From contig JACQUE010000172.1 of assembly GCA_016210425.1 (NCBI GenBank), forward strand, positions 1 through 12,029: 12,029 bases of DNA, read 5' to 3'. This document shows, piece after piece, positions 82 through 12,029 of this stretch (position 1 is its first letter; the number at the start of each line of letters is the position of its first letter). The notes beneath the pieces are model-generated. The model had not been told where the DNA came from and ran no database searches. It saw only the letters and a program-made list of their open reading frames with translations. Position numbers and translations under genes: made by a program. The DNA comes from Chloroflexota bacterium (GTDB lineage: Bacteria > Chloroflexota > Dehalococcoidia > JACQUE01).

Positions 82-1344
82 CTACGCTTCTGCAGGCACC
101 GGCTCGCTCCCCAGGCGGCGGACGCGGCGGTTGAAGGCGCCGCTGAGGAAAGCAAACCCGGAGACCGCTGAACCACCGAGGGCCACCGCAAAGGGAGCGC
201 CGAGGGAGCTGGCGATGAGGCCGCTGGCCATCCCTCCCACCGGCATGATGTTGTACGTCATCCCGTAGATGCCCATTACCCGTCCGCGAAGCTGGTCAGG
301 GACCCGCGCTTGCAGCGTGCTCATGACGGAGATCATGTATACAGACTGGGAGAAGCCGGCCAGGAAGAGGAGGCCGATGGAAACGTAGTACCAGTGGGAG
401 AGCCCGAAGGCCACGACGAACCCTCCGAAGATAGCCGATCCGCCCAGCAGCAACCATCCGCGATGGGCGAAGCGTCCCATGAGAGCGACGGCGGCAGTGC
501 CCAGGAGGGCGCCGATGCCGCCGGCTCCGGCAAGGGTACCCTGAGCGGTGGCGCCCTTGTGCAATATGTCGACGGCGAAGATGGGCATGAGCTGGATGTA
601 GGCCAGGCCAAAGAAGCTGTTGAAGAAGGTCATGCCGATTAGCGAGGAGAAAAGCGAGTTGTCGCGGACGAAGCGCGCGCCCTGGAGGAGGTTCTGGAGC
701 GGCGTGCCGTGCGTGGGCCGCTCGATCTGCGGGACTTTGAGGCGCGAGATGAGGAAGACCATGCTCAGAAACCCGGCGCTTCCGGCGTAAAGGGAGGCCT
801 CGGTGCCGGCCGCTGCGATGATGAGGCCGGCGAGCATCGGTGCGACGATCCGTGTCCCTTGCCAGATCGAGGAGTTGAGGGCGACGGCGTTCATCAGGTC
901 CTTGCGGTCGATAAGGTGAGGTAAGATGGCCTGGCGCGCCGGCTGGTCGAAGGCTTGGACGGTGCCGTTGCAGAAGGCGATGACCAGCACGTGCCAGACC
1001 TGGACGATGCCCAGAAGCGTAAGTGTAGCCAGCAACAGAATAAGGGTTGCCGAAGCCGTCTGGGTGGCCATGATCAGGCGGCGCTGGTCGAGCCTATCAG
1101 CTACGACGCCCCCGAAAAGATTAAGGACAATGGCTGGCATGCCGGTGGCCAGCCCCACGGAGCCGAGCCATATGGGGTCTTTTTCGAGCTGCCGGATCAG
1201 CCAAAGCTGGCTGAACGTGACCATCTGGAAGCCGATCACAGAGGCCAGGGTAGCAAACCAGTACTTGCGGTACTCCGGATAGCGCATCGCGCCCAACATG
1301 CCCCTGTTGCGCGTGAGGTGGCTGCCGATCGCCTCCATAGACAT
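82..1344 (-). CDS. MFS transporter, EntS/MFS_3-type drug or siderophore exporter
   Basis: A 420-residue multi-spanning membrane protein of the major facilitator superfamily, close in size to the usual 12-helix fold. The loop after helix 2 holds the family motif A as GGVVADRLDQRR (about residues 78-89). The cytoplasmic start MRYPEYRKYW and the overall layout resemble the MFS_3 (enterobactin exporter-like) group, so it probably exports a small molecule by proton antiport; the substrate cannot be read from sequence. I start it at ATG 1344 because AGGAAGAGGG lies 8 bases upstream. The longer frame from TTG 1422 is rejected because that TTG sits inside the apparent -35 box. It is divergent from the 1440 gene and shows no functional link to the lipid block beyond proximity. 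Confidence 0.9.
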   Translation of the reverse strand: MSMEAIGSHLTRNRGMLGAMRYPEYRKYWFATLASVIGFQMVTFSQLWLIRQLEKDPIWLGSVGLATGMPAIVLNLFGGVVADRLDQRRLIMATQTASATLILLLATLTLLGIVQVWHVLVIAFCNGTVQAFDQPARQAILPHLIDRKDLMNAVALNSSIWQGTRIVAPMLAGLIIAAAGTEASLYAGSAGFLSMVFLISRLKVPQIERPTHGTPLQNLLQGARFVRDNSLFSSLIGMTFFNSFFGLAYIQLMPIFAVDILHKGATAQGTLAGAGGIGALLGTAAVALMGRFAHRGWLLLGGSAIFGGFVVAFGLSHWYYVSIGLLFLAGFSQSVYMISVMSTLQARVPDQLRGRVMGIYGMTYNIMPVGGMASGLIASSLGAPFAVALGGSAVSGFAFLSGAFNRRVRRLGSEPVPAEA

Positions 1345-1370
1345 GCCGTAGGCCCTCTTCCTGTGAAACC

Positions 1371-1380
1371 CCTCGCGAGG
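1371..1380. promoter_or_regulatory. Perfect 10-bp palindrome in the MFS leader, possible operator
   Basis: CCTCGCGAGG is a perfect palindrome about 8-17 bases downstream of the predicted MFS transcription start and upstream of the ribosome binding site. Exporter genes are often controlled by TetR- or MarR-type repressors that bind such sites, but no regulator gene is present here and a 10-bp palindrome can occur by chance. Confidence 0.25.
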
Positions 1381-1394
1381 AACTGGGTGAGAAG

Positions 1395-1422
1395 AGTATA
1401 TACTACGTCGAAAGCTCGTCAA
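1395..1422 (-). promoter_or_regulatory. Sigma70-type promoter for the MFS gene
   Basis: On the minus strand TTGACG (1422-1417) is followed after 16 bp by TATACT (1400-1395). Each box matches five of six consensus bases. The predicted start near 1388 leaves a leader of about 44 nt containing a good Shine-Dalgarno before ATG 1344. This is the clearest promoter in the window and it helps decide the MFS start codon. Confidence 0.65.
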
Positions 1423-1439
1423 AGTATCGCGGGTAGCAC

Positions 1440-2474
1440 GTGCTAGCTGTGCCTACTTTGCGGCAGCGCTCCACAGATGTATCATGGTTTCAGCAACTCA
1501 CGATAAGCAGGCAGACATTGCGCCGACACCGTTTCAGGTTCATACTGGGACTCCTAGCCGGCATAGCCCTGCTTTTCGCTGTGGCGAAGTTTATCAACCT
1601 GACCAGGACCTGGCACGAGTTTAATGAATACCCGTGGCAGACGCTACCCGCGATCCTCGCCCTGAGTCTGGGCTACTACCTGGTGAAGGCCGTACGCTGG
1701 CAGTACTTCATCAGGGCAATCGATATTAAGCTCCCCCTGCGGAGGTCGGTCCTAGTCTATTTGGCCGGCCAATGGTTCGCCTTCACGCCCGCCGGTGAGT
1801 TCGTCAGAGCCTACCTGTTGACAGGCTATGGCTTCAGCTTCAGCCGGGGCTCGGCGGCGGTGGCCGTTCAGGTGGTCTTTGACCTGCTCTCCTTAGCCAT
1901 CGTCGGCTCCCTCGCCGTCTTGCGCTACCCTCAGTTGTCCACCCTTGTGCAGCCCTTCACAGCGGCTATGATCGTGGGCATCCTTGCCTTCGTCTATTGG
2001 CCGCAGTTTAGACGGCGGCCTTCCTCCGCCTTCGTTCCCGGGGCGGCAACGGCAACTGTAGGGCGATTCGGCCACTTCTACGCCTATTCCCGGCAGTTGC
2101 TGGGCTGGAAGCAACTGCTCATCGGGCTGGCCTTGGGCCTTGTCTCTGTCGTTATGGGTGTCTTGGTGCTCTTGGAGGTCTCGCGCAACCATGAGATCGA
2201 AGTCGGTTTTACCCAGTCGGCGTACATCTACTCCCTGTCGCAGTTGGCGGGAGCGCTCTCCATGCTGCCCCACGGGCTGGGTGCGATAGAAGGAAGCGCG
2301 GTCGGCCTGTTTCACAACGCGGGAGTTGACACCGCTCACGCCGCCTCGGCCATCGTTCTGTTTCGCCTGGCCACGCTGGGCTGGAGCGTGGTTTTAGGCG
2401 GCGTCTCTCTCGTGTTGTTGCGGACTCCTCTGGCAGGGCCGGCTCCACGTAGCCCTCAGAAACCTGTACAATGA
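1440..2474 (+). CDS. Lysylphosphatidylglycerol-synthase TM / UPF0104 family membrane protein
   Basis: A 344-residue integral membrane protein with about seven to eight hydrophobic segments. It carries the hallmarks of the LPG_synthase_TM (UPF0104, AglD-like) family: GYYLVKAVRWQYF in the early part, AFTPAGEFVRAYLL in the middle, and LPHGLGAIEGSAVGLF near the C terminus. Family members include the flippase half of MprF and proteins placed beside lipid or polyprenyl-sugar glycosyltransferases; none of these activities can be assigned here, and no aminoacyl-transferase domain is fused. The start is uncertain: GTG 1440 and GTG 1449 are in frame, TTG codons follow, and none has a strong Shine-Dalgarno. 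The stop lies 4 nt before the phosphatase ATG, so the two are likely co-transcribed. Confidence 0.85.
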   Translation: MLAVPTLRQRSTDVSWFQQLTISRQTLRRHRFRFILGLLAGIALLFAVAKFINLTRTWHEFNEYPWQTLPAILALSLGYYLVKAVRWQYFIRAIDIKLPLRRSVLVYLAGQWFAFTPAGEFVRAYLLTGYGFSFSRGSAAVAVQVVFDLLSLAIVGSLAVLRYPQLSTLVQPFTAAMIVGILAFVYWPQFRRRPSSAFVPGAATATVGRFGHFYAYSRQLLGWKQLLIGLALGLVSVVMGVLVLLEVSRNHEIEVGFTQSAYIYSLSQLAGALSMLPHGLGAIEGSAVGLFHNAGVDTAHAASAIVLFRLATLGWSVVLGGVSLVLLRTPLAGPAPRSPQKPVQ

Positions 2475-2485
2475 CATAATGTACA
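2465..2485. repeat. TGTACA-N9-TGTACA repeat over a gene junction
   Basis: Two copies of the self-complementary hexamer TGTACA (2465-2470 and 2480-2485) flank the stop of the UPF0104 gene and the start of the phosphatase gene. Spacing is 15 bp centre to centre. It could form a weak hairpin over the phosphatase start or be a protein site, but chance is not excluded. Confidence 0.25.
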
Positions 2486-4008
2486 CCGTCGAGCGCTGGG
2501 CGATGGGAACGGCTGGCGTCAGAAAGTCTAGCGTGATGCTGAAGAAGCGGCTCGCAATGCCGGTCGCAGTTGTCCTGGTATGGCTGATAAGCCTCGTCGC
2601 GATTAGTGCACCCTGGGCATCCCGCCATGCCGTAGCGGCGGAGCCCATCCGCCTGACCAAGGGCCCCTACATCCAGAACGCGACTGTCGATTCGGCCCTC
2701 GTCTGTTGGGAAGCCAATGTCCCTCACTCCGGCGCCGTAGCTTACGGCACCACCACAGCCTACGGCTCGCTTAGCCTGGCCGATGGTAGAGACAGGGGCC
2801 ATTGCGCGAGACTGGACGGGCTCCAAGCTTACACGGTCTACCACTATAAGGTGCTTGCGGAAGAGACAGAGCTATCTTCCGACGCCACTTTCAAGACCCT
2901 GGCCGGCCCTAAGAGCGCGAAGATCAGCTTCGTGGCCTGGGGGGACAACCGCACCAACCACTCTATCCATCGTGGCCTGGCCCTGCAGGTCAAGCAGGCG
3001 GAGCCCGACTTCGTGATAAATGTGGGGGACCTGGTGGAGTCGGGCAAGCGCATGAGCGATTGGGATGCCTTCTTCGAGGATGAAAAGGAGCTATTACTCA
3101 CAGCGCCCCTTTACCCGGCCCTGGGCAACCAAGAGGAGGATAGCCCCCTTTACTTCTCGCTGTTTGCTCTGCCGGGCAACGAGAGATGGTACAGCTTCGA
3201 CAGCGGCCCGGCCCATTTCGTGGCCTTGGACGTCGTGTTCTCGGACTACGGGCCGGGAAGCGAGCAGTATGCGTGGCTGGAGCGTGACCTCAGAGAGACG
3301 GCTAGACCCTGGAAGATCGTGTTTGCTCACTATCCACCATACGATTTCTCAAGCTTCAGGGGCAGCGCGCTGGCGGTAAGGGAGGCTCTAGCGCCGCTCT
3401 TTGAAAAGTATGGCGTCCAGGTGGTTTTCGGCGGCCACAACCACCATTATCAACGCAACCTGGCCAACGGCGTGACGTACATCGTGACCGGCGGCGGCGG
3501 AGCGCCTCTTCATCCTGTGGCTATTGGCCCGTGGACGGCCTACGCCGAAACCACATACCACTTCGTGAAGATCTCCATCGATGGGAACACCCTCTCCAGC
3601 GTGGCTGTCCGGGCGGACGGAAGCGAGTTCGATCCCTTCACCCTATCGCTGAAGATAGCGCCTTTTGCGCCCGAGGAGCCGGTGATTAACTCGCTGGCGC
3701 CTGTGGGCATACTGGAGATGGTGAGCTGCCAGCGCTGCCATGACCCCTTCCGTCTGACCAACAAGCGTCTGGTAAGCTATGGATGGAAGTTTCATCGGCC
3801 CTTCATAGTGCGCGGAGGCATTGCCTTGGCCGCCCTAGTCCTGCTCCTAGTCGGCGGATGGTGGGCCTGGCATCTGAAGATCGGGAAAGGAAAGACGGAC
3901 CATGCGAAGGGCAAGACTTATTCTCAATCCCATACCCTGGGCTCGGCGCGCCTGGAGCAACCTGCCCGAGACAGTAAACCTGCTGGAAGACGCAGGCATA
4001 CGGGTTGA
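2479..4008 (+). CDS. Purple-acid-phosphatase-like metallophosphoesterase, exported and C-terminally anchored, with CxxCH motif
   Basis: A 509-residue protein. Residues 20-53 (LKKR, a hydrophobic core, then AVA) form a signal peptide, so the true start may be ATG 2536. Residues 57-140 resemble the fibronectin-like N-domain of purple acid phosphatases. The catalytic domain (about 148-380) has the metal-binding series GDNR (D156), GDLVESG (D184), GNQE (N217), AHYPPY (H284) and GGHNHH (H320, H322). Gln replaces the usual His of GNH[DE]. The enzyme should hydrolyse a phosphate ester outside the membrane; the substrate is unknown. After the domain comes a c-type heme-like CQRCH (417-421), then one transmembrane helix (about 443-465) and a basic tail. 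The last 35 or so codons are shared out of frame with the lipid kinase gene and are probably non-conserved. Confidence 0.88.
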   Translation: MYTVERWAMGTAGVRKSSVMLKKRLAMPVAVVLVWLISLVAISAPWASRHAVAAEPIRLTKGPYIQNATVDSALVCWEANVPHSGAVAYGTTTAYGSLSLADGRDRGHCARLDGLQAYTVYHYKVLAEETELSSDATFKTLAGPKSAKISFVAWGDNRTNHSIHRGLALQVKQAEPDFVINVGDLVESGKRMSDWDAFFEDEKELLLTAPLYPALGNQEEDSPLYFSLFALPGNERWYSFDSGPAHFVALDVVFSDYGPGSEQYAWLERDLRETARPWKIVFAHYPPYDFSSFRGSALAVREALAPLFEKYGVQVVFGGHNHHYQRNLANGVTYIVTGGGGAPLHPVAIGPWTAYAETTYHFVKISIDGNTLSSVAVRADGSEFDPFTLSLKIAPFAPEEPVINSLAPVGILEMVSCQRCHDPFRLTNKRLVSYGWKFHRPFIVRGGIALAALVLLLVGGWWAWHLKIGKGKTDHAKGKTYSQSHTLGSARLEQPARDSKPAGRRRHTG

Positions 4009-4765
4009 CCTGGCCTTCACCAAAATGACCGAGGCGATGACTCAGTCGGTGGCGCAGGCCGTCCAAGAGGACTACGACCTGGTCATCGCCGGCGGTGGCG
4101 ATGGGACGGTGAGCGAGGTGGCCTCAGGTCTGGTTGGCACAGGCGTCCCTCTGGGCATACTGCCCTTTGGGACGTACAACAACGTTGCCCATAGCTTGGG
4201 CGTGCCGCTGGACCTGGCCGCAGCCAGCCGTGCCATAGCCGAAGGCAAGACAATCGACATTGACGTGGGCGTGGCCAATGGCAATTATTTCTTCGAGGCC
4301 GTCGGCGTCGGACTGGATGCATCCCTTTTCCCCATCGGAGAGGAGATCAAAGGGGGACACTATGAGAAGGTCTTGCAGGGGGCGATGAAATTCCTGCGCC
4401 AACGCAAGGCTGAGATGACGCTCATCCTGGATGGAGAGGAGTTGAACCTGCGGTCGCCGATGGCGGTGGTGGCCAATGGGCCCTACTACGGCGCTGGGTT
4501 CACGATAGCTCCCCAGGCCAGCCTCACCGACGGGATGCTGGAGGTGGTCATCTTCGAGTGCAGCATGGTGGAGGTGGCCCGCCACTTCGCTCTCAGTGCC
4601 CAGAACCGCGTCCACGAGGAACCCTGCGTCACGGTACACCGCAGTCGCGAGGTCAAGGTCCTCTCAAGGCTACCGCTGCCGGCCCATGCCGACGGAAGGC
4701 CCATCGGCAATGCGCCCGTGGCTTGCAGCGTCCTTCCCGGCGCGCTGCGGGTCATCGTCCCCTAG
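3902..4765 (+). CDS. Diacylglycerol/lipid kinase (DagK/YegS family)
   Basis: A 287-residue cytoplasmic kinase of the DAGK catalytic-domain family, which phosphorylates diacylglycerol or a related lipid with ATP to give phosphatidate. It begins with the family opening RLILNP. The nucleotide-binding motif GGGDGT is at 64-69, followed by ILPFGTYNNVAHSLG (about 86-100), a fold-typical IAPQASLTDGMLEVV, and the C-terminal HADGRPIG...VLPGALRVIVP ending. Length is normal. ATG 3902 is supported by a GGAAAGGAAAG ribosome site just upstream and by the conserved N terminus, which lies wholly inside the preceding phosphatase gene (107-bp overlap in a different frame). Its 3' end overlaps the convergent PAP2 gene by 96 bp. 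The neighbouring PAP2 phosphatase and DAG glycosyltransferase fit a diacylglycerol-centred role. Confidence 0.93.
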   Translation: MRRARLILNPIPWARRAWSNLPETVNLLEDAGIRVDLAFTKMTEAMTQSVAQAVQEDYDLVIAGGGDGTVSEVASGLVGTGVPLGILPFGTYNNVAHSLGVPLDLAAASRAIAEGKTIDIDVGVANGNYFFEAVGVGLDASLFPIGEEIKGGHYEKVLQGAMKFLRQRKAEMTLILDGEELNLRSPMAVVANGPYYGAGFTIAPQASLTDGMLEVVIFECSMVEVARHFALSAQNRVHEEPCVTVHRSREVKVLSRLPLPAHADGRPIGNAPVACSVLPGALRVIVP

Positions 4766-6187
4766 ACTCCTCGGCCAGACCTGCCTCACCAGAAACAGCG
4801 AGTATTCGCCCACGAGGTACCCTAGCACCAGGGTGGCCGCCGCGTCGGTAGGCCAGGCGGCCCCGAAGTAGAGGAGGCTCACAGACACCAGGAGCGGGTA
4901 GACGTTGGCGGCGATGCGCAGCTTACCCCACGACCGCGCCAGGACCGAGCTCAACGCCGTTACCAACAGCAGATATGGGTTGGGCAGAGCGGCAAGTGAT
5001 GGCCAGTGGCGCTGCCAGGCTTGCGGCAGATCGGCCTCTCCGGTGGTGAAAGGCCTGGGGCGCTCGAACTGGGGCGAGACGATACTTACCAGTATCTCGA
5101 CGACCACGAGGGCTGCGACGATGGCAAGGGCAGATCGGCCTACGCCGTTCTGGCCGCGGAGTGCGCCGTGGCCCAGGATGATGACAGCCAGGGCCGGGTA
5201 GACTACAGCCGGGTTTGCCAACAGCCAGTACACGGCTTTAGCGTAGCCGGGATCGAAGCGCCGGAAAACGGGGTAGACAAGACTGTTGTCGGTGTTGCGC
5301 AGATAGTCGGCCAGGATGCGGGGGCTATCGATGTGTATCACGTAGCCCAAAGCGAGGCCAATGACTAGGAGCAAGACAAGCGCCAAGGCCAGACGTATCG
5401 CCCTTGGTAGTAGCGGATCAGCAGCATCCAAGCTTGTAGGGCGCGGCCGCAACAGGTAGTCGTAAACCCTTCTTGCCCCTTGCGTTCTTGCCAGCGATGC
5501 GATGACCTTGCTCACACCCTCAACCACCAGGACGCTGAAGGCGCCGGCCAGCAGGCCGACGACTATGCCGCCGATGACATCGGTAGGAAAATGGGCTCCG
5601 AGGTAGACACGGCTTGCCCCGATCAAAGCGACGTACGGAACGGCAAACCACGCTGCCCGGCGCCAGTAGTAGACGAGGACGAGGGACAAGCCGGTCAACT
5701 CGCGGACGTGGCCGCTGGGGAAGCTGGGTAGCTGCCCCCAGATGGAGCGCCAATGCTCGTCCATCTGCACATCTGGGGCGAGCATAAAAGGCCGGGGGCG
5801 TAAGCCGAACCATTGGGTGTATTGGATGGTCCAAGCCCCAACAATCAGGACAAGGCCCAGAGCAACGACCGCACTCACCATGTCCCGGCGTCGCTTCAAC
5901 CAGACATACACTGCGCAGGCTGCCACCACCACGGAGTAGTCAAGGCCTGGGTCGTTGAAGAAGGTGAGGATGAAACTGGTTAGTCCGGCGTTGTTCAGTC
6001 CGATGGCCTTGCGGAAGAGCTTTAAGTCTATGTCCAGGGCCCGCTGTGGCAGGTTCACCGACAAGAAAGCAAGGAGAAAGGAGACCCCGACGACGATGCC
6101 CAGGACGGCAACGGGCACGGCAACAGCATAGGACACGTCCCGCCAGAGGGCGTGGTCCCCAGACCTGGCTCCGTCCTGAGAAGTCAT
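4670..6187 (-). CDS. Tandem PAP2-family membrane phosphatase; first site intact, second degenerate
   Basis: A 505-residue polytopic membrane protein made of two PAP2 (type 2 phosphatidate phosphatase) repeats. Domain 1 (about 20-230) has RPRPF (R132-P133), PSFPSGH (H160) and SRVYLGAHFPTD (R193, H199, D203), a workable catalytic set, although the usual Lys of the K-x6-RP motif is Gln125. Domain 2 (about 265-470) keeps RPRPF (376-380) and D448, but the PSGH loop is gone, the Arg is Leu438 and the His is Ala444, so it should be inactive. Likely substrates are phosphatidate, polyprenyl pyrophosphate or similar. I start at ATG 6187, which shares ATGA with the upstream stop and has AGGAG about 10 nt before it; TTG 6196 would abut that site. 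The last 32 residues are antisense to the kinase gene. Confidence 0.9.
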   Translation of the reverse strand: MTSQDGARSGDHALWRDVSYAVAVPVAVLGIVVGVSFLLAFLSVNLPQRALDIDLKLFRKAIGLNNAGLTSFILTFFNDPGLDYSVVVAACAVYVWLKRRRDMVSAVVALGLVLIVGAWTIQYTQWFGLRPRPFMLAPDVQMDEHWRSIWGQLPSFPSGHVRELTGLSLVLVYYWRRAAWFAVPYVALIGASRVYLGAHFPTDVIGGIVVGLLAGAFSVLVVEGVSKVIASLARTQGARRVYDYLLRPRPTSLDAADPLLPRAIRLALALVLLLVIGLALGYVIHIDSPRILADYLRNTDNSLVYPVFRRFDPGYAKAVYWLLANPAVVYPALAVIILGHGALRGQNGVGRSALAIVAALVVVEILVSIVSPQFERPRPFTTGEADLPQAWQRHWPSLAALPNPYLLLVTALSSVLARSWGKLRIAANVYPLLVSVSLLYFGAAWPTDAAATLVLGYLVGEYSLFLVRQVWPRSLGDDDPQRAGKDAASHGRIADGPSVGMGRQR

Positions 6188-7350
6188 CTCTGGCAATCTC
6201 CTGTAGACGGTCGCCCGTTCTCAGCCAGCCCCAGCATCTCCATGGCGACCACGGCTATGCGCGTAGCAGCATGCGTCCAGTGCTTCCGGTAGTCCTCCGC
6301 CCCAGCCACCAACTGCCGCATCTCGCTGGGGTCAGCTAGCCATCTCTCCATCGTCCGAACCAGCTCTGAAGGGCTCGATACCATATGCGCCAGACCATGG
6401 CTACACGCGAAGCGGGCGTTGGTCGTCTCCTGGCCCGGCAAGGGACGCAGGTAGACGATAGGCCTGCCGGTGGCGATGGCCTCGCCGGTAGTGAGGGCCC
6501 CGGCTTTGCTCACAACGACATCCGCCGCTTTCATCACCTTAGGCATGTTGTCTCCGAAGCCCAGCACCCGGTTAGCCACGGATAATGAGCGTCTGTCCAG
6601 CTTTCGGCGCAGCCTCCCGTTCCTTCCGCAGGCAATGATCAGTTGCACCGGCAGCCGGGCTTTGGAGATGGCTTCGGCAGCCGAGAGCATCGCTCCGGCC
6701 CCCTCGCCGCCGCCGGCGAGCAGGAGCGTGAAGGCTTCCTCCGTCAGGCCAAGCTGGCGCCGCGCCTCGCCGGAGTCTGGCTCCCCCGCCCAGAAGCGGG
6801 CGCCAATGGGGAGCCCTATAAGGCGAATTTGCTGGGAGTTGACACCTCTTGCGATCAAGCTCATGCGGACCTCTTCCGTCGGCACCAGGTACAGGCTGAC
6901 CTGCGGAGCGATCCAGGTCGCGTGGGCCACAGCCAGATCGGTGACCACCGTTGCCAGGGGCGCCGACGATCCCGTTTCGCGTAAGGCTTCGGCGACGACC
7001 TGAGTGGACAGCGGGTGGACGCAGATGACCAAATCAGGGGCATGGGTCCGCAGCATATGGCCTGTTCGACATCTCCACGTTTTCCTCATCAGCCGACGAA
7101 AGACCCGACAGAAGGTGCTTGTGTCGCTGAGCCTGTAGACTAAGCCCCAGAGAATGGGAAGGTGCACGATGGTGCAGGCGTAGAGGCGGCTTGTTTGTCC
7201 CGTCCAGGAAAGGCCGCCGAGCGCTCGCCAGTCCAGGATGTCGGCCTCTAGTAGCCCGGTTCCCAGTTGGCGAAGGGCCGCAGACACGCTATCGGCCACG
7301 GAGTTATGTCCGGCTCCTGTGGCAGCGGTGACGATCAGGACTTTCTTCAT
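6184..7350 (-). CDS. MGDG-synthase/UgtP-like diacylglycerol glycosyltransferase (GT28)
   Basis: A 388-residue GT-B fold glycosyltransferase. The N terminus MKKVLIVTAATGAGHNS is the signature of the MGDG synthase family (acceptor half, TGAGH at 11-15). The C-terminal half has the nucleotide-sugar site: GGGEGAG (213-219), SKAGALTTGEA (281-291) and PLPGQETTNA (303-312), matching the SKPGGLT and PGQE-NA motifs of processive diacylglycerol glucosyltransferases. It probably transfers a sugar from a UDP-sugar to diacylglycerol at the inner membrane face. Donor and number of sugars added are not predictable. It follows the sulfatase gene by 33 bp and is coupled to PAP2 by an ATGA overlap. I see no good Shine-Dalgarno before ATG 7350. 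Confidence 0.92.
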   Translation of the reverse strand: MKKVLIVTAATGAGHNSVADSVSAALRQLGTGLLEADILDWRALGGLSWTGQTSRLYACTIVHLPILWGLVYRLSDTSTFCRVFRRLMRKTWRCRTGHMLRTHAPDLVICVHPLSTQVVAEALRETGSSAPLATVVTDLAVAHATWIAPQVSLYLVPTEEVRMSLIARGVNSQQIRLIGLPIGARFWAGEPDSGEARRQLGLTEEAFTLLLAGGGEGAGAMLSAAEAISKARLPVQLIIACGRNGRLRRKLDRRSLSVANRVLGFGDNMPKVMKAADVVVSKAGALTTGEAIATGRPIVYLRPLPGQETTNARFACSHGLAHMVSSPSELVRTMERWLADPSEMRQLVAGAEDYRKHWTHAATRIAVVAMEMLGLAENGRPSTGDCQR

Positions 7351-7383
7351 GGAGAGATAATGACGTCCGGCACGGCGCTCTCG

Positions 7384-8811
7384 CTAGGGGCCAATGCCAT
7401 TCCTGGCCATCCAGGAGTTCAGCTTCTGCTCTAAAGAGGAGGCTTGCTTGGGCTCGCTCGATGCCAGGTTGGTGAGCTCTCCCGGATCGGTTACTAGGTT
7501 ATAGAGCTCCAACTGCCCGGTAAGGTTGTACTTTATCAGTTTCCAACCATCCGCCACAATTGCGATACTACTGTCGTCGGGCACTTGGACGAAGGCCATT
7601 CGATCATCGGTGCTATTAGGGGCAGAGACAAGAGGCCAGAGGCTCTGGCCTTCGGTTTGAGGAGGATCGGGTACGCCTAGCGTTTGAAGGATTGTCGGCA
7701 TGATATCTATGGTCCTGACCGTTTGCCGTATGACCAGGCCAGCCGGCATCATAGCCGGATATCTGACTATGAGAGGAACTCTGACGACGCTATTGTAGAG
7801 GATCCAGGGATGGGACCAGCGCCCGTTGTCGTTGAAGCTCTCGCCGTGGTCACTGGTGGCTATCACCAGTGTATTGTCAAGAAGGTTGGCCTGTTTCATT
7901 CCATCCAGGAAGCGGCCGATCTCCCTGTCGGTGAAAGAGACCTCTCCATCATATAGGGCGAGCAGGTGTTTAACTTCGGCCTCCGAAAGCTGCTCGCCCG
8001 CGCCTATCCTATCGATGGTCTGGTATCCCCCGTCCGGGCAGCCCGGGCAGTCGGGGTCGTACATGGTGTCGAAGGGAGGCGGCGGAGTATAGGGGTAGTG
8101 TGGGTCCTGGTAGTGTATCCAGAGGAAGAAGGGCCCGGAGGGCCTATTTAGGAGCCAGCGCAGGGCCGCGTCGGTGGTGAGGTTGGCTCGGCCATCCACA
8201 GCCCGCCACGGGTCTGTCTCTCCCGGTGTGCTCACATATACACCCTCAGAAGTCATGAAGCCGCGTTCCAGCCCTGAATACTGAGGCTCAAAGGTGGGCC
8301 AACTGAAGATTCCGGCGGTGGTGTAGCCGTTGCCGGCCAATACCTCGGCCAGAGTAAATACGTTAGAGCGGAGTTTGTCCACCGCGTGGATCTTGATTCC
8401 ATGCGTGGCGGCGTAGGTCGAGGTGAAGATGGAGGCGTGGGCTGGGTTGGTCTGGGAGAACGAGGAGATGGCAAGAGCAAAGCGCGTTCCCTGCTGGGCC
8501 AAGGCATCCAGGTTGGGCGTCTTGACGGTCGTGTTCCCGTAGGAGCCCAGATGGTCGGCGCGGAGGGTGTCGATGGTGATTAGCAGGATATTTGGTCTGC
8601 TGCTCGTCTCGCCTGGAGCCTCAGTCGCCGTCGTTGCTGTCGGCACCGAGTCCGGGGCCGCTCTTTCAAGCTCAACTTTGCCTGGGGGGTTAATTGAGCC
8701 ATCGTTAGCGTCGTTGCCTCTATCTTCGTTGCCCCGAGCAGCGCAAGATGTGGCGACGGATCCCGAAAGCGCAATAAGCACCCATACCAGGATCAGAGAA
8801 CGCGAGAGCAT
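7384..8811 (-). CDS. Sulfatase/alkaline-phosphatase-fold hydrolase with Thr at the nucleophile position, exported
   Basis: A 475-residue secreted or lipid-anchored protein. Residues 1-22 form a signal peptide ending VATS before Cys23, an imperfect lipobox; a low-complexity Thr/Ala/Pro-rich linker follows to about residue 72. The sulfatase domain shows NILLITIDTLRADHLGSYG (metal ligand D81), HYQDPHYPY, ATSDHGESF and the C-terminal ELYNLVTDPGE. At the formylglycine position the usual C/S-x-P-x-R is T-N-P-A-H (T121, H125). Canonical Cys/Ser-to-formylglycine maturation is therefore impossible, and no maturase gene is visible nearby. Threonine nucleophiles occur in phosphoglycerol transferases and phosphodiesterases of this superfamily, so the substrate may be a phospho-lipid headgroup. 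ATG 8811 has GGAGGGA (8819-8825) 7 nt upstream. Confidence 0.88.
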   Translation of the reverse strand: MLSRSLILVWVLIALSGSVATSCAARGNEDRGNDANDGSINPPGKVELERAAPDSVPTATTATEAPGETSSRPNILLITIDTLRADHLGSYGNTTVKTPNLDALAQQGTRFALAISSFSQTNPAHASIFTSTYAATHGIKIHAVDKLRSNVFTLAEVLAGNGYTTAGIFSWPTFEPQYSGLERGFMTSEGVYVSTPGETDPWRAVDGRANLTTDAALRWLLNRPSGPFFLWIHYQDPHYPYTPPPPFDTMYDPDCPGCPDGGYQTIDRIGAGEQLSEAEVKHLLALYDGEVSFTDREIGRFLDGMKQANLLDNTLVIATSDHGESFNDNGRWSHPWILYNSVVRVPLIVRYPAMMPAGLVIRQTVRTIDIMPTILQTLGVPDPPQTEGQSLWPLVSAPNSTDDRMAFVQVPDDSSIAIVADGWKLIKYNLTGQLELYNLVTDPGELTNLASSEPKQASSLEQKLNSWMARNGIGP

Positions 8812-9073: not shown

Positions 9074-9155
9074 TTTTGTCGGAACCGTCCGATAATAGCG
9101 ACGACAGGAAGAATAAAGACAAACAGAGCAAAACTGAATAGGGACTCCGACAAAA
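9074..9155 (+). repeat. 10-bp inverted repeat whose right arm is the aptamer 5' strand
   Basis: TTTTGTCGGA (9074-9083) is the exact reverse complement of TCCGACAAAA (9146-9155). The right arm covers the 5' ligand-pocket strand of the riboswitch including the specificity base at 9155. If both arms are transcribed, they could form a helix that blocks aptamer folding. The left arm also has a local partner: TCGGA (9079-9083) with TCCGA (9088-9092). Confidence 0.5.
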
Positions 9156-9238
9156 GCAAATCCATCGAAAGGTGGAGACGCAAAGCCACGGGTCTAAAGC
9201 CGCGAGAGCGGCCATGATCGCCGGGTTGCCGAAGAGGG
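9142..9238 (+). promoter_or_regulatory. GEMM-I riboswitch (cyclic dinucleotide aptamer), A20 variant predicted to sense 3',3'-cGAMP
   Basis: The aptamer is recognisable element by element. GCAAA (9156-9160) is followed by P2, TCCATC (9161-9166) with GGTGGA (9171-9176) closed by a GAAA tetraloop (9167-9170). The core GACGCAAAGCC (9177-9187) holds the intercalating A47 equivalent at 9182. P3 is GCCGC-GAGA-GCGGC (9199-9212), flanked by CTAAAG and CATGA, which resemble the tetraloop receptor. The 3' end GCCGGGTTGCCGA (9220-9232) holds the C92 equivalent at 9229. Aligned to Vibrio Vc2, position 20 is A (9155) instead of G. In GEMM-I RNAs A at this place goes with 3',3'-cGAMP binding, as in Geobacter, or with dual specificity. 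P1 looks short (CTC with GAG). It sits about 170 nt upstream of flp on the same strand. Confidence 0.92.
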
Positions 9239-9248
9239 ACGGACTTGG

Positions 9249-9294
9249 GGCCGCCTCGCTTTCGTCATCCGCTGCGAGGCGGCCATCTTATTAG
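9249..9294 (+). terminator. Riboswitch expression platform: 11-bp terminator-like hairpin
   Basis: GGCCGCCTCGC (9249-9259) pairs perfectly with GCGAGGCGGCC (9274-9284) across a 14-nt loop, and ATCTTATTAG follows. The T-tract is interrupted, so termination strength is uncertain. The left arm can instead pair with the aptamer's P3 strand GCGAGAGCGGCC (9202-9213), almost a copy of the right arm with one extra A. Ligand-stabilised P3 would free the left arm for the terminator, so the simplest reading is a ligand-OFF switch. An alternative is a non-terminating hairpin acting on Rho or on RNA stability. Confidence 0.65.
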
Positions 9295-9405: not shown

Positions 9406-9570
9406 ATGAAGATGCTGAGGAGATTCTGGAAGGATGAGTCGGCGCCCACGATGCCGGAGTACGCACTGATGGTCGCCCTGGTCGCCATCGTCGCTATCGT
9501 TGGGGCCCAGCTTCTGGGTACCAACATTCTGGCGAGGCTCAATCAGATCGCTGCCGCTATCGGTCCCTAA
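9406..9570 (+). CDS. flp: Flp-family type IVb pilin
   Basis: A 54-residue prepilin: a short basic leader (MKMLRRFWKDESA) is followed by PTMPEYALMVALVAIVAIV, a hydrophobic helix, and the family-typical LLGTNI...LNQIAAAIGP tail. Glu18 and Tyr19 are the +5/+6 EY pair of Flp pilins if cleavage is after Ala13; the usual residue at -1 is Gly, so the site is atypical. It should be processed by the peptidase encoded next door and polymerised into a Tad pilus for adhesion or surface contact. Start at ATG 9406 follows AAAAGGAG; a second in-frame ATG is at 9412. It is the first gene after the riboswitch and is followed by a strong hairpin before the next gene. Confidence 0.93.
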   Translation: MKMLRRFWKDESAPTMPEYALMVALVAIVAIVGAQLLGTNILARLNQIAAAIGP

Positions 9571-9643: not shown

Positions 9644-10195
9644 ATGCTATCTTACGCTACCAGCATTGTCCTGGTCGTCGTCCTGGCTATTGGGAGCTAC
9701 AGCGATGTCAAGCGCCGCCGAATACCCAACTGGCAGACGGTCCCCGCCCTGGTGCTGGGCCTCACCCTAAACGGGCTTCTCGGCGGCCCGCGCGGCCTCC
9801 TCTCAAGCCTGGCCGCCAGCCTCTTCGCCTTCGGGTTGCTCATTGTTCCGTGGCTCCTCGGAGCGATCGGTGGCGGCGACGCGAAGCTCTTAATGGCCGT
9901 GGGCGCGCTAAAGGGATGGCCCTTGATCCTCTCAGCCACGTGGCTCTCGGCGATCGCGGCTGGCCTCCTTGCCATCTCACTGGTGATCAGGAGGCGCAGC
10001 CTGCTGCAGATGGTCGGCTATGTCCTGTCGCCAGCAGCTGGTGGCGTCGGGCCTTACCTGCCGCAGCCCGTGGGCGCCAGATTAGCCTCGTTCAAGGTGG
10101 AGAAGCCAGAGGCTCTAGCGGCCACTCTGCCGGCGGGGCTGGCGATAGCCATCGGCACGCTGGGAGCGCTGCTGTTGCAGGCTTTCGGCCGCTAG
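9644..10195 (+). CDS. tadV: Prepilin peptidase, A24 family (CpaA/TadV)
   Basis: A 183-residue membrane aspartic protease that cleaves Flp prepilin and TadE-type pseudopilin leaders at the cytoplasmic face of the membrane. Both catalytic motifs are present: SYSDVKRRRIPN (Asp at about residue 21) and GGGDAKLLMAVGALKG (Asp at about 80). Like other CpaA/TadV enzymes it lacks the N-methylating domain of PilD. Five or six hydrophobic segments are visible, with a longer hydrophilic loop (about 140-160) before the last one. It lies 73 bp after flp, and its ribosome site (GGGGG, close to ATG 9644) is weak. The open frame that starts at 9850 in another register is a shadow of this gene joined to tadE. 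Confidence 0.93.
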   Translation: MLSYATSIVLVVVLAIGSYSDVKRRRIPNWQTVPALVLGLTLNGLLGGPRGLLSSLAASLFAFGLLIVPWLLGAIGGGDAKLLMAVGALKGWPLILSATWLSAIAAGLLAISLVIRRRSLLQMVGYVLSPAAGGVGPYLPQPVGARLASFKVEKPEALAATLPAGLAIAIGTLGALLLQAFGR

Positions 10196-10218
10196 GCGGA
10201 GACATATCGGAGCGTCGG

Positions 10219-10668
10219 ATGAAACGTGTCGTGTGTAGGCTTCAAGAGGAAAAAGGTACAGGCCTGGTTGAATTCGCCCTGATGGCGACGGTGCTGGCTT
10301 TCCTCCTCTTTGGCATCTGGGATTTTGGACGTGTATTGGATGCCCGGATAGTTGCGACGAACGCGGCGCGGGAAGCCGCGCGCTATGGGGCAGTCTATGG
10401 CGCGGATCAGGACCTGTCACAGGCGGAGGTCGTGAGCCAGGCGCAGCAGAAGGCAACCGAGTACCTTCAGACGGGCTTGGGGACGCGCACTGACATCCGA
10501 CCATACTCCGTCAGCGACATAGTCGTCCAGTTCCCCAATGGGCGTCTCGTTGGGGAGCCAGTACAAGTCAGCGTCGACCTTAAGGTGGATGTTTGGCCAT
10601 TCATGAGGCAGTTCTTTGGGGGGGCCGATGTCGCGACTATCCGGGGCGCTGCCAGCATACGTATCTAG
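10219..10668 (+). CDS. tadE: TadE-like minor pilin
   Basis: A 149-residue pseudopilin. The N terminus EEKGTGLVEFALMATVLAFLLFGIWDFGR fits the TadE/TadF family: Gly13 could be -1 of prepilin peptidase cleavage with Glu18 at +5, then one transmembrane helix, then AREAARYGAVYG and a periplasmic or external domain. It would be processed by the upstream peptidase and help assemble the Flp pilus. The frame is open back to 9850, but ATG 10219, preceded by GGAG with a 6-nt gap, gives the family start and lies 23 bp after tadV. No cysteine occurs in the mature part. Confidence 0.9.
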   Translation: MKRVVCRLQEEKGTGLVEFALMATVLAFLLFGIWDFGRVLDARIVATNAAREAARYGAVYGADQDLSQAEVVSQAQQKATEYLQTGLGTRTDIRPYSVSDIVVQFPNGRLVGEPVQVSVDLKVDVWPFMRQFFGGADVATIRGAASIRI

Positions 10669-10677
10669 GTGGGCAAG

Positions 10678-11094
10678 ATGCAAGCCACCAGCAGGATGAG
10701 ATCGGACACGGGAGCGAGCACGGTGGAGTTTGCGATCGTCGGTACGCTTCTTTTGCTCCTCATGTTTGGCACGCTGGAGGGGGGGCGCCTATTCAATAGC
10801 TGGATGCTCATCACCAGCGAGGCCAGGGAGGGCTCCCGCTGGGGTGTGGTACGGGTGGGTGATCCCGCCTACTCCGACTTGAATGTCCTCAAGTCCGACG
10901 TGGAGGAACATGTTAGGGCCAGGACGAGCGGGCTCCTTGACCAGGCCCCGGCCGTATTCAACGTGCAAGCCACAGCGACCGAGGAGCAGGTCACAGTCAC
11001 TATAGACTACAGGGTCTCTATGGTCACGCCCATCATATCCGGCATTCGCCCCTCGTTTCAACTGCGAGCTGCGTCCACGATGCGTTCGGAGTAA
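10678..11094 (+). CDS. Second TadE/TadF-like minor pilin
   Basis: A 138-residue protein of the same family as the gene before it. The leader ends SDTG and the mature part starts ASTVEFAIVGTLLLLLMFG, giving Gly12 at -1 and Glu17 at +5, followed by one helix and SEAREGSRWGVV, which resembles AREAARYG of the first copy. Two paralogous minor pilins in tandem are usual in tad loci. ATG 10678 is chosen over GTG 10669 because AGGTGG (10667-10672), overlapping the tadE stop, is well spaced for it. The gene is coupled to its neighbours on both sides. Confidence 0.88.
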   Translation: MQATSRMRSDTGASTVEFAIVGTLLLLLMFGTLEGGRLFNSWMLITSEAREGSRWGVVRVGDPAYSDLNVLKSDVEEHVRARTSGLLDQAPAVFNVQATATEEQVTVTIDYRVSMVTPIISGIRPSFQLRAASTMRSE

Positions 11095-11116: not shown

Positions 11117-12029
11117 TTGAGGCTGTTGCGTGCTCTTGGGAACGACGATGGGGGGGCCATTATCGTCCTGGCTGGCATCTCTCTGGCCGCGCTCATGGGG
11201 TTTGTCGCCCTGGTGACGGATGTGGGGTTGATGGAAGTGACGCGGCGACAGCTCCAGAGCGGTGTCGACGGGGCTGCCCTGGCCGGCGCCTGGCAGCTAC
11301 CGAAAGACTCCGCGGGGGCCGTGGACATGGCCTATGACTATGCGGCCCGCAACGGCTTGGCTCCGTCCGAGGTCACCGACGCCCACGTCTTCCGTATTTT
11401 CCAGACTGACGAAGACGATGCCATCGAGGTCAAAGCAGACAGGACCGTCAACCTCTTCTTCGCCCGCGCACTGGGCATGAACACGGCGACCGTTGGCGCC
11501 TCGGCGACGGCCATCGTGGCCCCCCTGAAGCCGGGAGACCTCTGGCCATGGGGCGTCCCGCAGAGCCAGATCGGCAGTGGGTACGGGGTGATGAAGTTGG
11601 GGGCACCGGACAGCATGACGGGGAATTTCTGGGCGCTGGACTATCCGCCGGGTGGCGGTGGAGCGGCGGCCTATCGCGACGACATCGAGCACGGCTGGGA
11701 CGACTCGGGGGACGCCATGCCTCCCTATGATTCCACCGAGCCCTACTCGTGGTGGGTGGCCACGAAGACCGGGGTCATCGGGTCGACCAAGCAGGCCACC
11801 GATTACCTGACGTCTATGAGCGACACCTCCGATCCGCCATCATGCGTCCTGGCAGACCCATATCATTACAATCCCGCTAGTCCGCCCGCTGGCTTCAACC
11901 CTCGCCTGGAGTGCTGGCGCATCGGCCTAGTCCCCGTTGCGACCGACGCGTCCTGGGAGGCGGCAAAGGGCACCAGCAATCCAGTAGAAATGATCGGATT
12001 TGCAGCCTTCTACTTCGTGGACTTCACGC
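11117..12029 (+). CDS. TadG-like Flp pilus assembly protein, 3' end beyond the window
   Basis: Open to the window end (304 full codons), so partial. The N-terminal helix GGAIIVLAGISLAALMGFVALVTDVGL followed by RRQLQSGVDGAALAGAWQL matches the TadE/TadG-like (Flp_N) domain at the start of TadG proteins. The rest is an external region rich in Gly, Pro and Trp, starting PGDLWPWGVPQSQIG, with two cysteines late in the visible part. No von Willebrand A motif is reached. The start is unclear: AAGGAGGG (11093-11100) is a strong ribosome site, but no ATG or GTG lies at a suitable distance. Choices are TTG 11117 (used here, 16 nt away) or a non-standard ACG 11105 (4 nt away). It probably anchors or adapts the pilus at the envelope. 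Confidence 0.85.
   Translation, partial: MRLLRALGNDDGGAIIVLAGISLAALMGFVALVTDVGLMEVTRRQLQSGVDGAALAGAWQLPKDSAGAVDMAYDYAARNGLAPSEVTDAHVFRIFQTDEDDAIEVKADRTVNLFFARALGMNTATVGASATAIVAPLKPGDLWPWGVPQSQIGSGYGVMKLGAPDSMTGNFWALDYPPGGGGAAAYRDDIEHGWDDSGDAMPPYDSTEPYSWWVATKTGVIGSTKQATDYLTSMSDTSDPPSCVLADPYHYNPASPPAGFNPRLECWRIGLVPVATDASWEAAKGTSNPVEMIGFAAFYFVDFT

What the first reader, a model, noticed from the sequence alone, without database searches (positions are those of the whole stretch)
9142..9238. GEMM-I riboswitch with A at the specificity position: a likely 3',3'-cGAMP sensor
The core motifs of the c-di-GMP-I class are all present, but the base aligned to Vc2 G20 is A (9155), within GACAAAAGCAAA (9149-9160). 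In this class, A here is known from Geobacter RNAs that bind 3',3'-cGAMP and not only c-di-GMP, and those RNAs control extracellular electron transfer and pilus genes. An A20 GEMM-I in what looks like a non-Geobacter genome, in front of a Tad pilus operon, would extend cGAMP signalling to another group. Ligand choice is inference; dual binding is possible.
Basis: partly seen in the sequence, partly recalled or inferred. Interest (0 to 1): 0.88.

Follow-up and report, generated by a model that had tools for sequence, protein, structure and literature searches.

The report
A20 c-di-GMP-class riboswitch before pilus operon
A real bacterial RNA sensor of the c-di-GMP family sits in front of a Tad pilus operon in a Chloroflexota genome and carries a letter that can shift it toward cyclic GMP-AMP, but the usual cyclic GMP-AMP-making enzyme was not seen in this incomplete genome or in four other Chloroflexota with the same letter, so it more likely still reads c-di-GMP.

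Summary
Window 9145-9233 (+) matches Rfam RF01051 at 85.3 bits (cut-off 35; E 3.8e-16), and the model column of Vc2 G20 reads A at 9155. The RNA lies in the leader of a Tad operon in a Chloroflexota genome that is 54% complete.

The cGAMP reading is only partly supported. Five A20-bearing Chloroflexota genomes hold 48 GGDEF matches; 41 read Asp at the Hypr selectivity residue and none Ser/Thr, whereas a Geobacteraceae control has 4 Ser of 11. The genome's second GEMM-I has C at position 20.

New here: in this class A20 is rare (2 of 59 strict-core sites). Both A20 RNAs, from different families, precede Tad operons; 0 of 34 tested G20 RNAs do.

Best reading: an A20 GEMM-I switch on Tad pili, probably read by c-di-GMP in the cell, with possible dual binding. 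Control through the stem at 9249-9284 is inferred; ON or OFF is unresolved.

The parts
9145..9233 (+). GEMM-I (c-di-GMP-I, RF01051) aptamer
   Evidence: cmscan 85.3 bits, E 3.8e-16; same place in the whole-genome search
9155..9155 (+). A at the position of Vc2 G20 (model position 11)
   Evidence: cmscan alignment; register checked by P2 pairs
9156..9181 (+). P2 with GAAA tetraloop; closing pair G9156-C9181 is of the Vc2 type (G21-C46), not the C15-G40 of the crystallised Geobacter cGAMP riboswitch
   Evidence: C15-G40 from PMC6274999, contact list of 4YAZ from PMC7288161
9184..9227 (+). P3, with apical hairpin 9199-9212
9229..9229 (+). C at the position of Vc2 C92
   Evidence: position assigned by hand from the alignment
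9237..9248 (+). possible switching strand: pairs with 9221-9230 in the ligand-free minimum-energy fold and dismantles P3a and the pocket
   Evidence: prediction only
9249..9284 (+). 11-bp G+C-rich stem-loop followed by ATCTTATT (9285-9292): probable intrinsic terminator, weak T tract
   Evidence: -24.8 kcal/mol; the consensus scan finds only shorter stems ending at 9282-9283, 2 found against a shuffle mean of 1.1
9406..9570 (+). Flp/Fap pilin gene
   Evidence: Pfam PF04964 E 5.4e-12
9644..10195 (+). type IV prepilin peptidase (TadV-like)
   Evidence: Pfam PF01478 E 1.4e-20
10192..10668 (+). TadE-like protein
   Evidence: Pfam PF07811 E 8.2e-14
10669..11094 (+). second TadE-like protein
   Evidence: Pfam PF07811 E 2.7e-12
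11117..12028 (+). Tad/TadG-like protein, cut by the contig end
   Evidence: Pfam PF13400 E 4.7e-10, PF09977 E 6e-06

Best explanation
It is a GEMM-I (c-di-GMP class I) riboswitch of the A20 variety in the 5' leader of a Tad pilus operon. Shown by computation: the aptamer, the A at position 20, the operon. Inferred: in the cell it is read mainly by c-di-GMP made by a canonical GGDEF enzyme, with loosened selectivity that would also let cGAMP bind in a tube; ligand binding holds P1/P3a together against an alternative fold (9143-9149 with 9189-9194 and 9221-9230 with 9237-9248), and this alters read-through at the stem 9249-9284 and so the amount of Tad pili. The direction is not determined; ON is favoured only by analogy with pilM.
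For: Aptamer and A20. Operon. The only intact GGDEF of the own genome has Asp at the Hypr position. In five A20-bearing Chloroflexota genomes 0 of 48 GGDEF matches have Ser/Thr there; the same reading finds 4 Ser of 11 in a Geobacteraceae genome that has an A20 aptamer. No SMODS CD-NTase in the own genome. The own second GEMM-I, nearest to the window aptamer among 42 class aptamers (84% identity), has C20, so position 20 varies within this genome. PMC9262584: the equivalent G to A or C in Cd1 has no large effect. The P2-closing pair is the Vc2-type G-C, and PMC9262584 says changes in lower P2 can affect c-di-GMP/cGAMP selectivity. Two-state fold: alternative -65.2, aptamer forced -62.7 kcal/mol.
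Against: Own genome 54% complete, so a missing Hypr enzyme proves little there; G026 has 7% contamination. In Vc2 changes at G20 cost affinity (G20U binds c-di-GMP at low micromolar, PMC4686816). A20 aptamers of a Geobacteraceae and a Desulfuromusa genome share the G21-C46 pair, so that pair does not argue against cGAMP strongly. A20 present in both Tad leaders of two families may mean selection rather than drift. The predicted terminator forms with probability near 1 without ligand and is also present when the aptamer is forced, so the switching step is not explained by equilibrium folding.
Confidence: 0.55

Rival explanations
1. A true 3',3'-cGAMP riboswitch (GEMM-Ib) controlling Tad pili, with a cGAMP synthase in the unassembled half of the genome or of an unrecognised type.
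For: A20; A20G of Gmet_0970 flips it to c-di-GMP (PMC6456294); the variant Desulfobacca aptamer gains cAMP-GMP binding (PMC9481103); pilus target as in Geobacter; both A20 RNAs of the class sample precede Tad operons and 0 of 34 tested G20 RNAs do; A20 aptamers of a Geobacteraceae and a Desulfuromusa genome have the same G21-C46 pair.
Against: 0 Ser/Thr among 48 GGDEF matches in five A20-bearing Chloroflexota genomes, including G026 at 96% completeness; no SMODS in the own genome (not searched in the other four); Hypr enzymes are thought to have arisen in deltaproteobacteria (PMC6456294), though they occur in other bacteria too (PMC9140294).
Confidence: 0.28
2. A decayed or low-affinity GEMM-I whose position 20 has drifted (A in one paralogue, C in the other) and which no longer regulates much.
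For: Own genome has A20 and C20 and no G20 found, while 54 of 59 strict-core sites in the class are G20; the terminator is predicted with or without the aptamer fold.
Against: The window aptamer keeps standard pairs throughout and both paralogues score high (85.3 and 83.6 bits); A20 is also found in a second family in the same place.
Confidence: 0.12
3. A sensor of another cyclic dinucleotide such as c-di-AMP.
For: Position 20 is not G; a Vc2 double mutant G20A/C92U is reported to bind c-di-AMP (PMC9049102, citing earlier work).
Against: The window keeps C at the position of C92; c-di-AMP does not bind the Geobacter cGAMP riboswitch, which has A at this position (PMC6274999).
Confidence: 0.02

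Closest known systems
c-di-GMP-I riboswitch (GEMM-I, RF01051; Vc2 type)
   Same: Consensus pairs, P2 with GAAA loop, P3, A47, C92, G21-C46 pair
   Different: A instead of G at position 20
3',3'-cGAMP riboswitch (GEMM-Ib; Geobacter, structure 4YAZ, pilM, Gmet_0970)
   Same: A at position 20; leader of a pilus operon (as pilM); 9 of the 11 contact residues that PMC7288161 lists for 4YAZ are identical (places assigned by hand)
   Different: Lower P2 pair G-C instead of C15-G40, A instead of U13; Tad genes instead of pilM; Chloroflexota; no Hypr GGDEF seen
Desulfobacca acetoxidans cluster-3 variant aptamer (PMC9481103)
   Same: Variant at the same selectivity position, outside Geobacter; binding-tested, improved cAMP-GMP with c-di-GMP only perhaps slightly weakened
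   Different: In tandem with a cobalamin riboswitch; the window has one aptamer only
A20 GEMM-I before Tad genes in class genome G026 (L018)
   Same: A20, GCAAATCCA...TGGAGACG core, Flp pilins then prepilin peptidase
   Different: Other family; long P3 apical insert; two Flp genes; the genome's other aptamer read (L159) is G20

Membership tests
c-di-GMP-I riboswitch (RF01051) | Covariance-model score over the curated cut-off | tested here: met
   85.3 bits against 35
c-di-GMP-I riboswitch (RF01051) | P2 and P3 helices with GNRA tetraloop, A47 and C92 | tested here: met
   All 22 model pairs standard, GAAA at 9167-9170, A9182, C9229
c-di-GMP-I riboswitch (RF01051) | P1 helix next to the pocket | tested here: inconclusive
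   Two pairs can form (G9149-C9230, C9148-G9231); forcing them costs 4.6 kcal/mol over the aptamer alone
c-di-GMP-I riboswitch (RF01051) | G at position 20 (consensus, not a strict requirement) | tested here: not met
   A9155; called a selectivity factor rather than a hard filter (PMC9262584), so I still file the RNA in the class as a variant
c-di-GMP-I riboswitch (RF01051) | Binds c-di-GMP | not testable with these tools
   needs in-line probing or ITC
3',3'-cGAMP riboswitch (GEMM-Ib) | A at position 20 | tested here: met
3',3'-cGAMP riboswitch (GEMM-Ib) | Prefers cGAMP over c-di-GMP | not testable with these tools
   needs binding assay
3',3'-cGAMP riboswitch (GEMM-Ib) | cGAMP synthase (Hypr GGDEF with Ser/Thr, or CD-NTase) in the genome | tested here: inconclusive
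   None seen in the own genome (54% complete); no Hypr residue in G026 (96% complete; 2 of 2 Asp)
3',3'-cGAMP riboswitch (GEMM-Ib) | Controls pilus or electron-transfer genes | tested here: met
   Position before a Tad pilus operon; control itself and cytochromes not tested

The most novel reading that the evidence does not exclude
A cGAMP (or dual cGAMP/c-di-GMP) signalling branch exists in Chloroflexota without Hypr GGDEF enzymes, in which A20 GEMM-I riboswitches are dedicated to Tad pili and G20 riboswitches of the same class to sensory kinases, sigma factors and secreted enzymes; its synthase would be a new or unassembled enzyme.
Probability: 0.18. Interest if true: 0.72.

Novelty: new member of a known kind. 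Interest (0 to 1): 0.42.

Why it matters
If it is a c-di-GMP switch, it shows that A20 must not be used alone to annotate cGAMP riboswitches, which touches many Bacillota and some Chloroflexota sites. If it does sense cGAMP, it moves Geobacter-style pilus control by cGAMP into another phylum without the known synthase. Either way one in-line probing experiment on a 95-nt RNA decides, and the class offers natural A20, C20 and G20 aptamers to compare.

Tried and rejected
Rejected: (1) that A20 is an alignment artefact: the P2 pairs fix the register. (3) That the lower P2 pair alone separates the two ligands: a Geobacteraceae and a Desulfuromusa genome have A20 with G21-C46 and G20 with C21-G46. 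(4) An antiterminator between 9202-9213 and 9249-9259: costs about 9 kcal/mol over the best fold. (5) One of the six A20 genomes of the phylum scan (G695, L261) is no aptamer: no Rfam match.

Led nowhere: the two founding cGAMP riboswitch papers (PMC4418906, 10.1073/pnas.1419264112) are not held, so statements about them rest on later papers or recall. The searches (capped lists) showed no paper that I recognised, from titles and abstract starts, as describing A20 GEMM-I in Chloroflexota or before Tad genes; most listed papers were not opened. The position-20 letters printed are wrong for several rows because its pattern starts early; I used instead. The regex missed the window's own Flp gene, so its negatives are weak; Pfam was run for 34 of the 47 G20 aptamers read, one ORF each, 6 of them without any family.

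Full report
What is there. Rfam RF01051 matches 9145-9233 on the + strand, full length, 85.3 bits, E 3.8e-16. The aligned column of Vc2 G20 is A at 9155. All 22 model pairs are standard, with a GAAA loop on P2, A at the A47 position (9182) and C at the C92 position (9229) (the last two places assigned by hand). The upstream gene (sulfatase, 7384-8811) runs the other way; the next genes on the + strand are a Flp pilin (9406-9570), a prepilin peptidase (9644-10195), two TadE-like genes (10192-10668, 10669-11094) and a Tad/TadG-like gene cut by the contig end (11117-12028).

Which organism. The genome is held as G000: 1.40 Mb in 266 contigs, 54.4% complete. The 59 relatives offered were all only of the same class. 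Among the named best homologues of the window's sulfatase are Chloroflexi/Chloroflexota and Dehalococcoidia MAG proteins (57%, 56% and 55% identity; two unnamed ones are nearer). I take it as Chloroflexota, probably Dehalococcoidia; the class is inference from one protein.

How unusual is A20. In 393 genomes of the class a strict core pattern finds G20 at 54 sites in 37 genomes and non-G20 at 5 sites in 4 genomes: A20 in the window and in G026, C20 in the own genome's second aptamer (L002), G230 and G322. A wider net gives the same picture: the covariance model finds 52 matches in 60 class genomes; of the 50 that I fetched and read, 47 are G20, 2 A20 and 1 C20; 2 were not fetched. In 400 genomes of the phylum the A20 pattern occurs in 6, one of which (G695) is no aptamer. 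So A20 is rare in this class but not special to Geobacter.

The Tad link. The only other A20 GEMM-I of the class sample, in G026 (another family, 96% complete, 7% contamination), also stands before Flp pilins and a prepilin peptidase. For 34 of the 47 G20 loci the longest downstream sense ORF starting within 700 bases was tested with Pfam: histidine kinases, response regulators, PAS proteins, sigma factors, subtilases, glycosyl hydrolases and others, no Tad gene; 6 had no family. A regex scan of 1.5 kb found Tad motifs only at the two A20 loci, but it is not fully sensitive. By my own arithmetic 2 of 2 against 0 of 34 has a chance of 1 in 630, post hoc and with several loci per genome. Two A20 sites of the named set also precede Tad genes: L110 (prepilin peptidase, Flp) and L052 (prepilin peptidase, TadE); only these two of 116 sites scanned showed such motifs.

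Which ligand. For cGAMP: A20 sets cGAMP preference in Geobacter RNAs (PMC6456294, passages), and the Desulfobacca variant aptamer gained cAMP-GMP binding with perhaps a slight loss of c-di-GMP (PMC9481103, passages and one section). Against: PMC9262584 (part of one section and passages) saw no large effect when the same position in Cd1 was changed to A or C, and calls it a selectivity factor rather than a hard filter; its mutants neither confirm nor exclude that this base binds the ligand. The producer test goes against cGAMP. PMC9140294 (passages) gives the rule: Asp at PleD D344 in strict c-di-GMP makers, Ser/Thr in Hypr enzymes. The own genome has one intact GGDEF with Asp and one degenerate domain with Glu; G026 2 of 2 Asp; three further A20-bearing Chloroflexota (G395, G396, G397, taken from six named ones) 20 of 23, 9 of 10 and 9 of 11 Asp. 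In all, 41 of 48 are Asp, 0 Ser/Thr, 5 other residues, 2 not alignable; several of the 48 are weak or degenerate matches. The Geobacteraceae genome G393, which has an A20 aptamer (L173), read the same way has 4 Ser of 11, two of them in intact GGDEF motifs. The own genome has no SMODS CD-NTase; the others were not searched for it.

The paralogue. The window aptamer's nearest relative among 42 class aptamers is the own second aptamer (84% identity), which has C at position 20 and is followed by a stem with a T5 tail, read by eye in the leader printed. Two paralogues with A and C and none with G in the known half of the genome fit loosened selectivity at this position. No ligand for natural C20 GEMM-I appears in the passages I read.

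Mechanism. The minimum-energy fold keeps P2 and the P3 tip but pairs 9143-9149 with 9189-9194 and 9221-9230 with 9237-9248, which destroys the pocket; forcing the aptamer costs 2.5 kcal/mol, an amount that ligand binding could pay (inference). An 11-bp stem at 9249-9284 (-24.8 kcal/mol) followed by ATCTTATT looks like a terminator with a weak T tract; the consensus scan there is near chance (2 found, 1.1 expected). The stem forms in both folds, so how ligand binding changes termination is not explained; a co-transcriptional effect is possible. ON is favoured only by analogy with pilM (PMC9262584).

Verdict. Real, well-formed A20 GEMM-I on a Tad operon; the step from A20 to cGAMP is not supported by the producer evidence but is not excluded.

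Noticed in passing
L002 (G000:C78:8913-9001): Second GEMM-I of the same genome has C at position 20 and is followed by a stem with a T5 tail; its gene lies beyond the contig end.
   Followed up: partly
L168 (G230), L171 (G322): Natural C20 GEMM-I recurs: before a GGDEF-motif ORF in G230, in G322, and at 16 of 113 named non-G20 sites; I saw no known ligand for it.
   Followed up: partly
L257, L258, L260, L259 (same stretch as L123), L058: Other Chloroflexota carry two GEMM-I aptamers in tandem: A20 with G20 in L257, L258, L259/L123 and L260, C20 with A20 in L058. A sortase gene follows in L260 (Pfam) and similar ORFs follow in others.
   Followed up: partly
L173, L174, L177, L181 against L176, L178, L179, L180, L184 (G393, G394): A Geobacteraceae and a Desulfuromusa genome hold aptamers with A20 and G21-C46 and others with G20 and a flipped C21-G46 pair, so these positions may vary together.
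   Followed up: no
L052, L110: Two named A20 GEMM-I sites precede Tad genes (prepilin peptidase with Flp in L110, with TadE in L052); L110 is labelled Bacillota, L052 I take to be Bacillota.
   Followed up: partly
window 82-8811: Upstream genes include a PAP2 protein, an MGDG-synthase-type glycosyltransferase, a diacylglycerol-kinase-family gene and an LPG-synthase-type membrane protein: perhaps a lipid-related cluster.
   Followed up: no
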